DNA from: JBGPLH01 sp041486365 [NCBI: Thermodesulfobacteriota bacterium]
Lineage (GTDB): Bacteria; JAUYMQ01
Length of the DNA stretch: 6,112 nucleotides
NCBI GenBank assembly: GCA_041486365.1
Contig: JBGPLH010000206.1
Coordinates: 1-6,112 of the forward strand
Direction of reading: 5' to 3'
The translations under genes and the position numbers were made by a program. The notes under the pieces are model-generated. The model was given only the letters and a program-made list of their open reading frames with translations. It was not told where the DNA came from and ran no database searches. Below are positions 1 to 4,381 of the stretch, piece by piece; the first letter of the stretch is position 1; each line of letters begins with the position of its first letter.

Positions 1-48
1 AAGTCTGACCCGAGGTCCCGAGCGCAGCGAGGGCCGACAAAGTCTGAC
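1..48 (+). repeat. 9-nt direct repeats flanking repeat copy 1
   Basis: AAGTCTGAC occurs at 1-9 and again at 40-48, a period of 39 nt or 13 codons. In frame it reads SLT-RGPERSEGRQ-SLT. The match stops after position 48. This suggests either the last unit of a tandem 39-nt array continuing left of the window, or a direct duplication bracketing the inserted element. The left edge prevents a choice. Confidence 0.6.
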
Positions 49-1222
49 GAGCGGCGCGCGCCGCGCTTCCGGCGGAGCCCGGCCGCGTGTCCTGGAGATC
101 CTCACGTGCCTGGAGCCCGGCGGCGCGGAAGCGATGGTGCTCGATCTCGCGCGCGGGCTCACGCGCCACGCCGACGTGGCCGTCGCGTACCTGAAGGGCC
201 CGGGAACGCTCACGCCCGCCTTTCGCCGGGCCGGGATCCCCGTCCACGCCCTCGGGATCGAGGGCCTCCGGGACGCGGCGGGCCTCTGGAGGCTCCTCGA
301 TCTCGTCGCCTCCGGCCGCTTCGACGTGGTCCACACGCACCTCCTGCACGCCGGGATCCTGGGCCGCGCGGCCGCGCGCCTGGCGCGGGTCCCCGTGATC
401 GTCCACACGCAGCACAACACGCTCCACTGGGAGACGACCTCGCCCCTGCTCGCGCGTGCCAATCGCGCGACGCTCGGCTTCGCTGATCGCGTGATTGCCG
501 TCGGGGAAACCGTGGCGGAGATGACGGCGCTCCACGGCCGTGTACCGCGGGAGCGGATCGCGACGATCCCCAACGGGGTGGACGTGCACCGATTCGTCCC
601 CGCCGACGCGCGCGGGTTTCTCGCGAAATCCTTCGGCGTGCCCCCGGACGCGCCGCTCGTCGGCGTCGTGGCGGGCTTTCGCCGCGTGAAGGGGCACGAC
701 GTGCTGCTCCCCGCCATCGAAGAGGTCGCCCGCGCGATCCCCGGCCTGCGCCTCCTGCTGGTCGGCGACGGCCCTCTCCGCGGCGCGGTCGAGCGGGAGA
801 TCGCCGCCCGGGGCCTTTCGGAGCGGACGATCCTCGCGGGGATGAGAACCGACGTCGAGGCGATCGTCCCGGGCTGCGACGTGATCGCGCTTCCGAGCCG
901 GGAGGAGGGAGTGCCCGTGAGCGTGCTCGAGGCGATGGCCTGCGGGGTGCCCGTCGTGGCCACGCGGGTCGGCGGGACGCCGGAGGTGCTGGCGGACGGG
1001 CGCACGGGGCTCCTCGTGCCGCCGGAGGATCCGCGGGCGCTGGCCGCGGCGCTGCTCCGCCTGCTGCGCCGACCCGAGGAGGCGCGCGCCATGGGGAAGC
1101 ACGGGCGGGAGAGGGTGCTCGAGCGCTTCAGCATCGGCGAGATGATCGCGCGGACCTGGGCGCTCTACGAGACGCTGCTCGCGGAGTCCAGGGAGAGGAG
1201 GGGCTGGCATGTGCGGGATTGA
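2..1222 (+). CDS. GT4-type glycosyltransferase A, 5' end outside window
   Basis: Predicted GT-B fold, retaining glycosyltransferase that moves a sugar from a nucleotide donor to a growing glycan in the cytoplasm. Visible motifs are the first beta strand and glycine loop RVLEILTCLEPGGAE (86-130), HTH (332-340), IPNGVD (566-583), a donor-phosphate Arg/Lys patch GFRRVKGHD, LLVGDGP, and the E-x7-E motif with glutamates at 905-907 and 929-931, followed by a typical GVPVVATRVGG stretch. The ATG at 134 would remove the first strand and glycine loop, so it is not the true start. The frame is open to the left edge with no in-frame ATG, GTG or TTG between 2 and 133, so the start lies upstream. The visible 406 residues are already full family length; the first 27 or so are a repeat-derived leader (GPERSEGRQ) and linker. 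It overlaps the next gene by 14 nt. Donor and acceptor are unknown. Confidence 0.9.
   Translation, partial: SLTRGPERSEGRQSLTSGARRASGGARPRVLEILTCLEPGGAEAMVLDLARGLTRHADVAVAYLKGPGTLTPAFRRAGIPVHALGIEGLRDAAGLWRLLDLVASGRFDVVHTHLLHAGILGRAAARLARVPVIVHTQHNTLHWETTSPLLARANRATLGFADRVIAVGETVAEMTALHGRVPRERIATIPNGVDVHRFVPADARGFLAKSFGVPPDAPLVGVVAGFRRVKGHDVLLPAIEEVARAIPGLRLLLVGDGPLRGAVEREIAARGLSERTILAGMRTDVEAIVPGCDVIALPSREEGVPVSVLEAMACGVPVVATRVGGTPEVLADGRTGLLVPPEDPRALAAALLRLLRRPEEARAMGKHGRERVLERFSIGEMIARTWALYETLLAESRERRGWHVRD
12..41 (+). repeat. Interspersed 30-nt repeat, copy 1 (translated as GPERSEGRQ)
   Basis: This 30-nt sequence is identical to positions 1333-1362. One mismatch follows (G42 versus A1363), then a shared TCT. 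It is read in the frame of glycosyltransferase A as GPERSEGRQSL, the same frame as in copy 2. Its core GAGCGCAGCGAG is nearly a mirror repeat and does not form a long hairpin. The element is open in five of six frames; a TGA at 45-47 closes the sixth. It lies ahead of the catalytic fold, so it would form an N-terminal leader if the gene starts upstream. Confidence 0.85.
51..64 (+). repeat. Perfect 14-nt palindrome after repeat copy 1
   Basis: GCGGCGCGCGCCGC at 51-64 equals its own reverse complement. It begins 9 nt after the 30-nt repeat ends and lies in the linker before the glycosyltransferase fold. It may be part of the repeat element or a chance product of very GC-rich sequence; copy 2 has no equivalent palindrome at this spacing. 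Confidence 0.5.
1196..1201 (+). promoter_or_regulatory. Ribosome binding site of the AsnB-like gene
   Basis: A perfect AGGAGG, extended by two more G, lies 7 nt before the ATG at 1209 and inside the last codons of glycosyltransferase A. It agrees with the Met-Cys start required for a class II amidotransferase. Confidence 0.8.
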
Positions 1223-3176
1223 CGGAATCCTGTCGCCGCGGCCCATCGATCCGGCGCGGCTCGAGGCGATGACGCAGGCGCTCACCCACCGCGGACCCGA
1301 CGGAGGCGGCGTGTGGATCGGGCGGCCTGCCGGAGGTCCCGAGCGCAGCGAGGGCCGACAAAATCTAAACGCTCATGGCCGCCCCCATGTGGGCCTCGGG
1401 CACCGCCGGCTGGCCATCGTCGATCTGTCCGCCGCGGGCGCCCAGCCGATGTCCTGCGCGGACGGCCGCCTCACGATCGTCTTCAACGGCGAGGTCTACA
1501 ACCACGATGCGCTCAGGCAGCGCCTCGCCGCGCGCCACCGCTTCCGATCCCGCTCGGACACCGAAGTGCTGCTCCACGGCTGGGAGGACGAGGGGAGTGC
1601 GTTTCTAGATCGCGTCGACGGCATGTTCGCGCTGGCCGTCTGGGACGCCCGCGACGGGAGCCTCACGCTGGCGCGCGATCGGATCGGCGAGAAGCCGCTC
1701 TTCCACGCATGGATCGGCGACACCTTCGTCTTCGCCTCCGAGCTCGGCGCGCTGCTCACGCATCCGGACTTTCCGCGGGAGATCGATCCCGAAGGACTTG
1801 ATCACTACCTCACCTGGGGCGCGATCCCGGCCCCCTGGACCATCTTCCGCGCCGCGCGGCGGCTCGGGCCGGGAAGCCTGCTCCGGGTGAAGGACGGCAA
1901 GGCCATCGAGACCGTGTGGCACCTGCCGGCGCCCGACCCTGATCCGCCCGCGACGCAAGCGGAGGCGCGGGCGCGGCTGCGCTCGGCCCTGGAGGACTCG
2001 GTCCGGTCGCGGCTGTCCGGGGACGTGCCCGTGGGCGCCTTTCTCTCGGGCGGCATGGACTCAAGCGTGATCGTGGGGCTCGCTTCCCGGGCCATGGGCG
2101 GCGTGCTCCGGACCTTCACCGTCGGCTTCGATGGCGCGGGTCCCTTCGACGAGCGGGCCTGCGCGCGGGAGGTGGCCCGGGCGTACGGAACGAATCACAC
2201 CGAGATCGTCATCGGGCCGGCGGAGGCCATCGCGGAGGCCGAGGCGCTGCTCGGCACGCTCGATGAGCCCTTCGGCGATTCCAGCGCGATCCCCACCTCG
2301 CTGGTCTCCCGGCACGCCCGGCGCGCGGTGAAGGTCGCGCTCTCGGGCGACGGCGCGGACGAGCTCTTCGCCGGCTACTGGAAGTACGTCGCCGAGTCGC
2401 TCTCTCCCTGGTACGCCAGGGTCCCCGCGGGCCTGCGCCGGGCGCTGGCGGGCGCCGCCGCGGCACTGCCCGAGGATCGCCGATCGGCGACGGGCGAGGC
2501 CCTGCGCCGCGCGCGGAAGTTTCTCCTCCGATTTGAGCCGGAGCCCGCGGCGCGGCACGCGGCCTGGATGCGCGTCCTGGACGCCGGGGCCAAGAACGAT
2601 CTGCTGGCCGCGCCCGACCCGGCGCTGTGGGCGAAGACCGATTCGCTCATCGAACGGCTGTACCAGGAGGCGCGGACGGACGACGTGCTGGGCGCCATGC
2701 TGTCCGTGGATCTTCGCCACACGCTCCCCACCGATATGCTGGCCAAGGTCGATCGCATGAGCATGGGCGTGGGGCTTGAGGTGCGCCTGCCCTATCTCGA
2801 TCCGAAGGTCATCTCGCTGGCCCTCGCGATCCCCTCGGCCTGGAAGCTCCGGGGCCGGCGTCGCAAGGCGATCCTCCTGGACGCCTGCGCGGACCTCGTG
2901 CCGCCCACCCTGCGCCGGCGTCCGAAGCGGGGATTCGAGCTGCCGCTCGGAGAGTGGTTCCGGGGCCCGCTGCGCGGTCTCCTCGAGGACACGCTCTCCG
3001 GGGAGACGCTCCGGGCCCAGGGGATCTTCCGGCCGGAGGCGGTGGCGCGCCTGAAGCGCGATCACCTCTCCCGGCGCCGGGATCACACGGCGCGCCTGTG
3101 GTGCCTCCTCGTCTTCACCGCATGGCATCGGCGCGCGCTCTCCGCCGCGCCGCGGGGCGGGGGAGGCGGGGCATGA
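1209..3176 (+). CDS. asnB: AsnB-type glutamine-hydrolysing amidotransferase with repeat-derived insertion
   Basis: A class II glutamine amidotransferase fused to an ATP-pyrophosphatase synthetase domain. Glutamine is hydrolysed in the N-terminal domain, and the ammonia amidates an adenylated carboxylate, which is aspartate in true AsnB. The start is fixed by MCGI, which leaves Cys2 as nucleophile once Met is removed. The glutaminase domain (about 1-210) shows RGPD (28-31), LGHRRLAIVDLS (63-74), NGEVYN (93-98), SDTE (116-119) and ASE (176-178). The synthetase domain shows the PP-loop SGGMDSS (280-286), SGDGADELFAGY (379-390), KVDRMSM (513-519) and EVRLPYLD (524-531). All key residues are present, so it should be active. 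Residues about 38-57 are an extra 20-residue insertion carrying GPERSEGRQ. At 655 aa it is within the size range of the long AsnB homologues found in polysaccharide and exosortase loci. Given its glycosyltransferase neighbours it may amidate a sugar carboxylate rather than aspartate; that part is inference. The C-terminal Gly run is encoded by the next gene's ribosome binding region. Confidence 0.95.
   Translation: MCGIDGILSPRPIDPARLEAMTQALTHRGPDGGGVWIGRPAGGPERSEGRQNLNAHGRPHVGLGHRRLAIVDLSAAGAQPMSCADGRLTIVFNGEVYNHDALRQRLAARHRFRSRSDTEVLLHGWEDEGSAFLDRVDGMFALAVWDARDGSLTLARDRIGEKPLFHAWIGDTFVFASELGALLTHPDFPREIDPEGLDHYLTWGAIPAPWTIFRAARRLGPGSLLRVKDGKAIETVWHLPAPDPDPPATQAEARARLRSALEDSVRSRLSGDVPVGAFLSGGMDSSVIVGLASRAMGGVLRTFTVGFDGAGPFDERACAREVARAYGTNHTEIVIGPAEAIAEAEALLGTLDEPFGDSSAIPTSLVSRHARRAVKVALSGDGADELFAGYWKYVAESLSPWYARVPAGLRRALAGAAAALPEDRRSATGEALRRARKFLLRFEPEPAARHAAWMRVLDAGAKNDLLAAPDPALWAKTDSLIERLYQEARTDDVLGAMLSVDLRHTLPTDMLAKVDRMSMGVGLEVRLPYLDPKVISLALAIPSAWKLRGRRRKAILLDACADLVPPTLRRRPKRGFELPLGEWFRGPLRGLLEDTLSGETLRAQGIFRPEAVARLKRDHLSRRRDHTARLWCLLVFTAWHRRALSAAPRGGGGGA
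1320..1384 (+). repeat. Probable insertion element bounded by 8-bp inverted repeats
   Basis: GGGCGGCC (1320-1327) and GGCCGCCC (1377-1384) are exact reverse complements. They bracket the segment that aligns with no residue in ordinary AsnB proteins (codons 38-57, 1320-1379). An inner pair GAGCG (1341-1345) and CGCTC (1370-1374) could extend the fold. The 60-nt excess is a multiple of three, so the frame is kept. The boundaries rest on comparison with remembered AsnB sequences, where RGPD and the HRRL or HERL motif are about 13 residues apart against 33 here. Confidence 0.55.
1333..1362 (+). repeat. Interspersed 30-nt repeat, copy 2 (inside the amidotransferase gene)
   Basis: Identical over 30 nt to 12-41 and read in the same frame, giving GPERSEGRQNL at residues 43-53. 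The following bases (AATCTAAAC) differ from copy 1 (AGTCTGACG) mainly by G-to-A changes, which looks like diverged homology beyond the exact block. This tail is noticeably AT-richer than the surrounding gene. The copy is in the same orientation as copy 1, 1,321 nt downstream. Confidence 0.9.
3162..3166 (+). promoter_or_regulatory. Ribosome binding site of glycosyltransferase B, in a G-rich tract
   Basis: GGAGG lies 6 nt before the ATG at 3173 and fixes that start over upstream in-frame ATGs such as 2954. It sits within a G-run tract (3154-3171: runs of 4, 5, 2 and 4 G with single-base gaps), which also encodes the Gly-rich tail of the amidotransferase. Confidence 0.75.
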
Positions 3177-4381
3177 GCGCGCGGATCCCCATCGTCCACC
3201 TGGTGAACACAGATTTCTTCGGGCGCTTCCTGATGCTGGGGCAGCTTCTCGCGCTCCGGGACGCCGGCTTTGCGCCCCGCCTCGTCGCGGGCCCGGGGCC
3301 CCTCATCCCCGAGATCGAGGCCGCGGGGATTCCCGTGACGGTGCTCGCTTCCAGCCGCCGAATTGCTCCGCTCGCCGATCTCGCCACGCTCGGACGCCTC
3401 GCGCGGATCCTGCGCGCAAGCGGGGCCTGGCTCGTTCACACGCACAACCCCAAGCTCAACCTGCTGGGCCCCCTCGCCGCGCGCCTCGCCGGTGTGCCCC
3501 GCGTCGCGACGACCGTGCACGGCTACTACTTCCACGAGGGGATGCCCGGGGTTGCCCGCGCCGCGTTCCAGGCCCTCGAGCGCGTCTCGTCGGCCTGCGC
3601 CGACGTGGTCTTCACTCAGAGCCGGGAGGACTACGAGACGGCGCTGCGCGCGGGCTTGTGCCCGCCGGGGAAGCTCGAGCACCTGGGCAACGGGGTCGAT
3701 CTCTCGCGCTTCGACCCGCACCGCGTGAAGCCCGACGATGTGGCGCGCACGCGGGAGATGATCGGGATTCCGGCAAACGCGCCGGTCGTGGGGATCGTGG
3801 GCCGCATGGTGCGTGAGAAGGGGTACCTCGAGTTCCTCGAGGCCGCGGCGATCGTGGCGCGCGTTCACCCCGGCGCGCACTTCGTCGCCGCGGGCCCCGA
3901 CGAGCGCTGGCAGAAGCCCGACGCCCTGCGCCGCGAGGAAGTCCTGGCCCTGTCGCAGCGCGATCCGGCGCTCCGCGGGAAGTTCCACGCGCTCGGACTC
4001 CGGCAGGATCTCCCCGAGCTGTTCGCCGCGATGGACGTGGTGGCGCTTCCCTCGCACCGCGAGGGATTCCCGCGAAGCCTGATCGAGGCGGCGGCCATGG
4101 CCCGGCCCATCGTGGCCACCGACATCCGCGGCTGTCGGGAGGTGGTGCGCGACGGGGAGAACGGCTTCCTCGTTCCGGTCAAGGACACGGCCGCGCTGGC
4201 CGATAGGATAGAGGCCCTTCTGTCCAGGCCCGACGTGGCGGCGGAGATGGGCGCGCGGGGGCGCGTCATCGCGCTCCGCCACGACGAGCGCGAGGTCAGC
4301 CGGCGGGTGGTGGCCGGCTACGAGCGGTTGCTCTCTTCTCCAGTAGGAAGATCACGCCCAGCCCTGACGAGAGTCCCGTGA
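3173..4381 (+). CDS. GT4-type glycosyltransferase B, CapM/PglA-like
   Basis: Predicted retaining GT-B glycosyltransferase of 402 residues, resembling the CapM/PglA group that adds a sugar to lipid-linked glycans. The N-terminal domain begins RIPIVHLVNTDFF and carries VHTHNPK (88 onward) and a TVHGYYFHEG acceptor-side loop. The C-terminal donor domain shows GNGVDLSRF, GIVGRMVREKGY with the donor-phosphate Arg and Lys, and the E-x7-E motif (Glu297 and Glu305) in REGFPRSLIEAA, followed by ATDIRGCREVV, which is typical of CapM-like enzymes. The start at 3173 is chosen because it overlaps the preceding stop as ATGA, has a good ribosome binding site, and precedes the first beta strand directly; an upstream in-frame start at 2954 would only add Pro/Gly/Arg-rich residues read from inside the amidotransferase gene. 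The last 14 or so residues are a short non-family tail. It overlaps the next gene by 4 nt (GTGA). Donor and acceptor cannot be named. Confidence 0.93.
   Translation: MSARIPIVHLVNTDFFGRFLMLGQLLALRDAGFAPRLVAGPGPLIPEIEAAGIPVTVLASSRRIAPLADLATLGRLARILRASGAWLVHTHNPKLNLLGPLAARLAGVPRVATTVHGYYFHEGMPGVARAAFQALERVSSACADVVFTQSREDYETALRAGLCPPGKLEHLGNGVDLSRFDPHRVKPDDVARTREMIGIPANAPVVGIVGRMVREKGYLEFLEAAAIVARVHPGAHFVAAGPDERWQKPDALRREEVLALSQRDPALRGKFHALGLRQDLPELFAAMDVVALPSHREGFPRSLIEAAAMARPIVATDIRGCREVVRDGENGFLVPVKDTAALADRIEALLSRPDVAAEMGARGRVIALRHDEREVSRRVVAGYERLLSSPVGRSRPALTRVP

What the first reader, a model, noticed from the sequence alone, without database searches (positions are those of the whole stretch)
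1320..1384. Repeat-derived 20-residue insertion inside the glutaminase domain of the amidotransferase
RGPD and the HRRL motif are 33 residues apart here, against about 13 in the AsnB proteins I remember. The excess of 20 residues (60 nt) carries a 30-nt sequence found elsewhere in the window. The frame is kept and all catalytic residues remain, so a repeat element appears to have been inserted in frame and tolerated in a surface loop of a metabolic enzyme. This parallels the Rickettsia palindromic elements, but in a very different, GC-rich genome.
Basis: partly seen in the sequence, partly recalled or inferred. Interest (0 to 1): 0.62.

Follow-up and report, generated by a model that had tools for sequence, protein, structure and literature searches.

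The report
Hairpin repeat inside an enzyme loop
A short hairpin-type DNA repeat seems to have landed, in frame, in a floppy loop of a bacterial sugar-coat enzyme without visibly breaking it; this is a clean new example of a kind of event already described in other bacteria.

Summary
RGPD and HRRL are 33 residues apart, and the loop carries a 32-nt sequence that recurs at 14-45 (0 expected in shuffles). The nearest relative found (L001, AsnB 64% identical, five genes in the same order) lacks it. Against L001 the excess is 13 residues (39 nt), not 20. That gap is the only one above 3 residues in 1,965 aligned columns over five genes, and it sits on the repeat. AlphaFold2 places the segment between two strands of one hairpin; residues 42-52 are the only internal stretch below pLDDT 50. 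The repeat's hairpin core, CCCGAGCGNAGCGAGGG, forms a 35-copy REP-like family in one of 50 genomes searched, where one copy matches 24 of 27 window letters. L001's genome has a different TGTC-tagged hairpin family. In-frame REPs, and the equation of Rickettsia RPE-4/6 with CGTC REPs, are published (PMC3733652). Best reading: REP-like intragenic insertion in a tolerant loop. Against it: the core is widespread with unrelated flanks, folding energy is ordinary, and copy number in the source genome could not be tested.

The parts
1209..3176 (+). asnB-like glutamine amidotransferase gene (655 aa), host of the insert
   Evidence: ORF; Pfam Asn_synthase 2.6e-97, GATase_6 and GATase_7; TIGR01536 above cut-off, TIGR03108 (XrtA/PEP-CTERM amidotransferase) 513 bits, below its 817 cut-off
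1331..1369 (+). 39-nt repeat unit, copy 2, inside the glutaminase domain; its length equals the 13-codon gap against L001 (exact edges uncertain by a few bases)
   Evidence: 35 of 39 identical to copy 1; 13-residue gap against L001
1338..1354 (+). hairpin core CCC-GA-GC-GCA-GC-GA-GGG of copy 2
   Evidence: sequence; core recurs in G031 and in viral contigs
1320..1384 (+). extended loop region (codons 38 to 59), bounded by an 8-nt inverted repeat GGGCGGCC / GGCCGCCC at 1320-1327 and 1377-1384
   Evidence: fold z-score only -0.97, so the outer inverted repeat may be chance
10..48 (+). 39-nt repeat unit, copy 1, in the open frame that leads into the first glycosyltransferase
1..9 (+). AAGTCTGAC, identical to 40-48: possible tail of a further unit upstream (39-nt period), cut by the window's end
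2..1222 (+). GT4 glycosyltransferase frame, open to the window's 5' end; no ATG, GTG or TTG in frame before the EPGG motif, so copy 1 may be translated as an N-terminal extension

Best explanation
A short hairpin repeat of the REP kind (unit about 39 nt, 13 codons) was inserted in frame into the AsnB-like amidotransferase gene. It landed at the tip of the beta-hairpin between RGPD and HRRL. The unit has no stop codon in the frame used and its net length is a multiple of three, so the reading frame survived. The 13 extra residues form a probably disordered loop that the enzyme probably tolerates. A second copy, apparently part of a 39-nt-period array, lies just upstream of or within the first glycosyltransferase gene. 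Shown: the two copies, the empty site in a syntenic relative, the in-frame length, the low-confidence loop, and REP-like repeats with the same core or tip in other genomes. Inferred: mobility (perhaps by a tyrosine transposase of the IS200/IS605 or RAYT kind acting on a single-stranded hairpin), high copy number in the source genome, and retained enzyme activity.
For: Two copies, 0 expected in shuffles. Syntenic relative L001 lacks the insert, and the 13-residue gap is the only one above 3 residues in 1,965 aligned columns over five genes. The net length, 39 nt, equals the spacing of AAGTCTGAC at 1-9 and 40-48. Codons 50-56 (CGA CAA AAT CTA AAC GCT CAT) are the lowest-GC3 run of seven in the gene (1 of 7, gene mean 0.89). 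The model puts the segment between strands 32-37 and 60-67, with 42-52 below pLDDT 50 in a 91.9 model. The core CCCGAGCGNAGCGAGGG has 35 copies in G031 against 0 for the reversed control, and none in the other 49 genomes of that call; of 31 distinct G031 sites read, 30 carry a [T/C]GTC[A/G]T tag, and four pairs lie in inverted orientation 44 nt apart. One G031 copy is the only match to the window 27-mer at up to 3 mismatches in 80 genomes, with 0 control matches. The relative G001 has its own hairpin family with the same GAGCGNAGCGA tip: 38 of 53 distinct tip sites read, all 38 with a TGTC tag; it also has three Y1 transposase matches. REPs inside genes are published (PMC3733652).
Against: Only two copies are seen, and the source genome is not held. 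The exact 27-mer is in none of the 84,980 species genomes as held (contigs under 3,000 bases are not held). G001 has no copy of the window's core at up to 1 mismatch, while the reversed control had 3. The hairpin is not unusually stable by nearest-neighbour energies (z from -0.60 to +1.41 for the bare element). The core is widespread with unrelated flanks (at least 120 viral-contig stretches against 13 for the reversed control), so sharing the core alone is weak evidence of kinship. In the 18 open stretches tested from G031 and G001 no copy lies inside a Pfam domain, so intragenic placement was not seen there. None of the 7 G031 transposase loci read (of 9 matches) has the core within 2 mismatches, so no transposase is tied to that family. 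The GACAAARTCTGAC flank adjoins the core in one G031 copy only. The second GT4 gene has a run of seven codons with no G or C in third position, so the codon anomaly is not unique in the window.
Confidence: 0.72

Rival explanations
1. The unit is a 39-nt tandem minisatellite that belongs to this locus. One unit was copied from the upstream array into asnB by local recombination, with no mobile REP element involved.
For: 39-nt spacing at the window's start and a 39-nt net insert; both copies on the same strand, 1.3 kb apart; the exact 27-mer is in no species genome held; no transposase tied to the core in G031.
Against: The core is a REP-like hairpin, dispersed in one searched genome and related by its tip to a dispersed family in the closest relative. 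The two units already differ at 4 of 39 sites.
Confidence: 0.16
2. The loop is a naturally variable, lineage-specific extension, and its likeness to the upstream sequence is gene conversion or coincidence.
For: The loop varies in length among homologues (19 to 24 on the relaxed scale in 5 of 79), and L001 is already longer than most.
Against: 32 nt shared with one degenerate site and 0 shuffle matches; the gap coincides with the repeat; anomalous third-position composition in codons 50-56.
Confidence: 0.07
3. Assembly artefact: the window's end or the loop was wrongly joined at a repeat.
For: The window begins inside the repeat, a typical place for an assembly to break (whether the window is a whole contig is not known).
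Against: The frame is kept, both flanks of the insert match L001, and the two copies are not identical.
Confidence: 0.05

Closest known systems
CGTC-tagged REPs (PMC3733652), which include Rickettsia RPE-4 and RPE-6
   Same: Short hairpin repeats, tag CGTC, TGTC or CCTC at one end, sometimes inside genes. G001 and G031 carry hairpins with a GTC tag and the same GAGCGNAGCGA tip.
   Different: The window element has TGTC next to its stem only on the strand opposite to that in G001 and G031; it has no A-T pairs at the stem base and no adjoining CCA tail; copy number unknown.
Rickettsia palindromic elements (RPE; Ogata 2000 and 2002, seen only as summarised in passages of PMC10969869; Ogata 2002 not held)
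   Same: A repeat inserted in frame in unrelated genes, encoding a peptide carried by the host protein.
   Different: PMC10969869 gives about 150 bp for RPEs; here about 39 nt, in a 73% GC sequence; no sequence comparison with RPEs was made.
GTAG REPs and REPINs with RAYT transposases (PMC3733652; REPIN paper PMC3116915 seen only in the listing)
   Same: Hairpin repeats in inverted pairs; G001 has a Y1 transposase gene flanked by copies of a repeat (L112).
   Different: No GTAG on either strand at 1-60 or 1310-1395; no transposase domain in the five window proteins; the repeats beside that G001 transposase are a different family.

Membership tests
Intragenic in-frame short hairpin repeat (broad kind) | repeat present at another place and absent from the orthologous site | tested here: met
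   second copy at 10-48; L001 empty at the site
Intragenic in-frame short hairpin repeat (broad kind) | frame and conserved residues of the host gene kept | tested here: met
   655-codon frame open, invariant columns shared with 36 homologues
Intragenic in-frame short hairpin repeat (broad kind) | stable hairpin | tested here: inconclusive
   folds, but no better than shuffles under RNA or DNA parameters
Intragenic in-frame short hairpin repeat (broad kind) | many copies dispersed in the source genome | not testable with these tools
   no genome held for the window
CGTC-tagged REP | tag CGTC, TGTC or CCTC at one end of the stem | tested here: inconclusive
   TGTC adjoins the stem on the minus strand (1360 to 1357), but on the opposite strand to the G001 and G031 copies
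CGTC-tagged REP | stem of 8-9 bp beginning with A-T pairs, loop of 4-5 | tested here: not met
   the stem begins GG/CC with an unpaired base in the four RNA folds and two of four DNA folds; the other two DNA folds pair differently
CGTC-tagged REP | short tail, mostly CCA | tested here: not met
   no CCA next to the stem on either strand; the only + strand CCA at 1-60 or 1310-1395 is at 1385
GTAG REP / REPIN | GTAG tag | tested here: not met
   no GTAG on either strand at 1-60 or 1310-1395
GTAG REP / REPIN | associated RAYT gene | tested here: inconclusive
   none in the window; source genome not held
Rickettsia palindromic element | sequence similarity to an RPE family | not tested
   no RPE sequence was compared; only the published equation of RPE-4/6 with CGTC REPs was read

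The most novel reading that the evidence does not exclude
The 39-nt unit is a protein-decorating repeat: 13 codons long, open in five of six frames, read in the same frame (GPERSEGRQ) in both genes of this window. It would spread through coding sequence of an uncultured GC-rich lineage much as RPEs do in Rickettsia, and be kept because unit length and open frames make insertions harmless.
Probability: 0.12. Interest if true: 0.6.

Novelty: new member of a known kind. Interest (0 to 1): 0.34.

Why it matters
It gives a clean case with an empty site in a relative: a hairpin repeat adds 13 residues to a core enzyme at a loop that a structure model predicts to be disordered. It fits the suggestion in PMC3733652 that intragenic REPs can be neutral when they fall in flexible linkers or loops. 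It also led to the sight that the hairpin core is far more common than its reversed control in viral contigs, with different stems, which deserves study of its own.

Tried and rejected
A mobile element with its own gene in the window: rejected, the five window proteins are three GT4 glycosyltransferases, the amidotransferase and a WecA-like transferase. A known RNA family: no Rfam match at gathering threshold. Further copies of the core in the window: 9 matches at up to 3 mismatches against 5.8 expected, only the two known ones exact. Phage or plasmid origin of the repeat, tested with bases 1-55 and 1-60: no convincing match (best E-values 1 and 0.4). GACAAARTCTGAC as a fixed part of the family: rejected, of 6 matches in 50 genomes only L173 (the same place as L084) adjoins the hairpin. 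Intragenic copies in the two comparison genomes: one search found 20 of 31 G031 copies and 27 of 39 G001 copies in open stretches of 150 codons or more, which means little at high GC; I gave Pfam 8 such stretches of G031 and 10 of G001 (8 loci), and the domains found (in 2 of 8 and 2 of 10) all start beyond the copy. A transposase beside the G031 family: not seen in 7 of 9 matches read. An unusually stable hairpin: not supported by standard energies; the tandem-GA plus GNA-loop reading is recalled chemistry and was not modelled. The excess of 20 residues as one event: rejected because L001 already has 7 of them. Of six paper searches, the strings of the core gave 0 papers, strings of the G001 repeat gave 8 papers whose titles are unrelated, and in the 12 of 29 papers listed I saw none that ties this mini-hairpin to REPs.

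Full report
What is in the window. The 6,112 bases (73% GC) carry a sugar-polymer gene cluster on the + strand: a GT4 glycosyltransferase open to the 5' end, an AsnB-like amidotransferase (1209-3176), two more GT4 enzymes and a WecA-like transferase cut by the 3' end. The amidotransferase is closest to the XrtA/PEP-CTERM amidotransferase model TIGR03108, but below its cut-off (513 against 817 bits); it passes the asparagine synthase model TIGR01536.

The repeat. GGTCCCGAGCGCAGCGAGGGCCGACAAARTCT occurs at 14-45 and 1335-1366, and at up to 3 mismatches nowhere else in the window, with 0 matches in 200 shuffles. Taken as 39-nt units, 10-48 and 1331-1369 agree at 35 of 39 sites, and AAGTCTGAC at 1-9 equals 40-48, which suggests a 39-nt period cut by the window's start. 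Five of the six frames of bases 1-48 are open. Both copies are read in the same frame, GPERSEGRQ; with five open frames this agreement alone is weak evidence.

The insertion. The best of 80 related loci (L001, a MAG named Deltaproteobacteria bacterium C24_metabat.bin.90; 64% identity, the other 79 at 45% or less) is syntenic with the window over 5.8 kb. Across the five genes (1,965 aligned columns) the gap lengths are 3; 1, 2, 13, 1, 2; none; 2; none, and the 13 is the segment that holds the repeat. So the insertion relative to L001 is 39 nt. On a relaxed scale 79 of 80 loci range from 15 to 24 and the window has 35; the protein read from L024 starts beyond the motif and was not measured. The loop therefore tolerates length change in general, and this case is the extreme.

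Signs of recent origin. Codons 50-56 have one G or C in seven third positions, the lowest run of seven in a gene with GC3 0.89; a binomial estimate gives 1.2e-5 per run, with 649 runs in the gene. Against this, the second GT4 gene has a run of 0 in 7 at nt 4334, so such runs are not unique in the window.

Structure. AlphaFold2 with 36 homologues gave mean pLDDT 91.9 and pTM 0.92; residues 42-52 are the only internal segment below 50 (the other is the C-terminus), between strands 32-37 and 60-67. The best solved relatives are TsnB9 (7ylz) and E. coli AsnB (1ct9); in the 7ylz sequence alignment the query has 20 residues there that the chain lacks. The invariant residues D31 and R67 lie at the other end of that hairpin from the tip, so the loop should be remote from Cys2; I did not measure the distance.

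What kind of repeat. The core reads CCC-GA-GC-GNA-GC-GA-GGG. Among 50 of the 80 genomes, one (G031, genome of L044, an Acidobacteriaceae MAG) has 35 copies against 0 for the reversed control, and 49 have none. In G031 all four bases occur at N, 30 of 31 distinct sites read carry [T/C]GTC[A/G]T before the core, and four pairs lie in inverted orientation 44 nt apart, which is REP or BIME behaviour. In all 80 genomes the only match to the window 27-mer at up to 3 mismatches is one of these copies. The exact 27-mer is in none of the species genomes held. The relative G001 has none of the window's core at up to 1 mismatch, but a different hairpin, TGTCATTGCGAGGAGCGNAGCGACGAAGCAATCC: 38 of 53 distinct tip sites read belong to it, all with TGTC (not all 88 sites were read). 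Its tip count is 88 against 30 for control. G001 also has three Y1 transposase matches, one flanked by copies of another repeat. In G031 none of the 7 transposase loci read has the core nearby.

A caution on kinship. The tip is thus shared by many unrelated-looking hairpins, perhaps because it is a stable fold (recalled, not tested), and the core alone does not prove descent. The tip is not enriched everywhere: counting by eye, 6 of 50 genomes have at least 20 sites and at least twice the control (G001, G010, G014, G017, G027, G031), while others, such as G029 and G044, fall below control. Standard energies do not make the element stand out.

Against the literature. PMC3733652 (passages, sections 6 and 15, and part 1 of 2 of section 17 read) describes CGTC-tagged REPs, equates R. 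conorii RPE-6 and RPE-4 with CGTC-1 and CGTC-4, lists REPs within ORFs of several species, and suggests that they may be neutral when in flexible linkers or loops. PMC10969869 (passages) summarises in-frame RPE insertions. Ogata 2002 was not held. The window element fails two CGTC features (A-T stem base, CCA tail) and is inconclusive on the tag, and it lacks GTAG, so I do not file it as a CGTC or GTAG REP; it works like an intragenic REP.

Mechanism, with what is shown. Shown: repeat, empty site, in-frame net length, low-confidence loop, REP-like repeats with the same core or tip elsewhere. Inferred: transposition of a hairpin repeat by a Y1-type transposase acting in trans, survival because the frame stayed open and the loop is tolerant, and enzyme activity. 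Copy 1 may be translated too: no ATG, GTG or TTG precedes the EPGG motif in the first glycosyltransferase frame, so either translation starts upstream of the window or the start is unusual.

Verdict. A sound observation with a corrected size, and an ordinary though tidy explanation: a new member of a known kind.

Noticed in passing
Viral-contig loci L178-L257; G001, G010, G014, G017, G027, G031: The hairpin tip GAGCGNAGCGA has at least twice its reversed control, with 20 or more sites, in 6 of 50 genomes (for example G027 171 against 59, G017 151 against 61, counted by eye; others are at or below control), and CCCGAGCGNAGCGAGGG is in at least 120 viral stretches against 13 for control, with many different basal stems. 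A recurrent hairpin tip may be worth its own study.
   Followed up: partly
L112 (G001), about 1090-2510: A Y1 transposase gene flanked on both sides by copies of a repeat (CCGTGCCCTAAAGGGCCGGCTC...) in direct and inverted orientation, a REPtron-like arrangement.
   Followed up: partly
window 4334-4381: The second GT4 gene has a C-terminal tail beyond its homology to L001 (after residue 386) that starts with seven codons without G or C in third position at 4334-4354, perhaps former intergenic sequence.
   Followed up: partly
window 1320-1327 and 1377-1384: A perfect 8-nt inverted repeat brackets the extended loop; by energy it is not beyond chance.
   Followed up: partly
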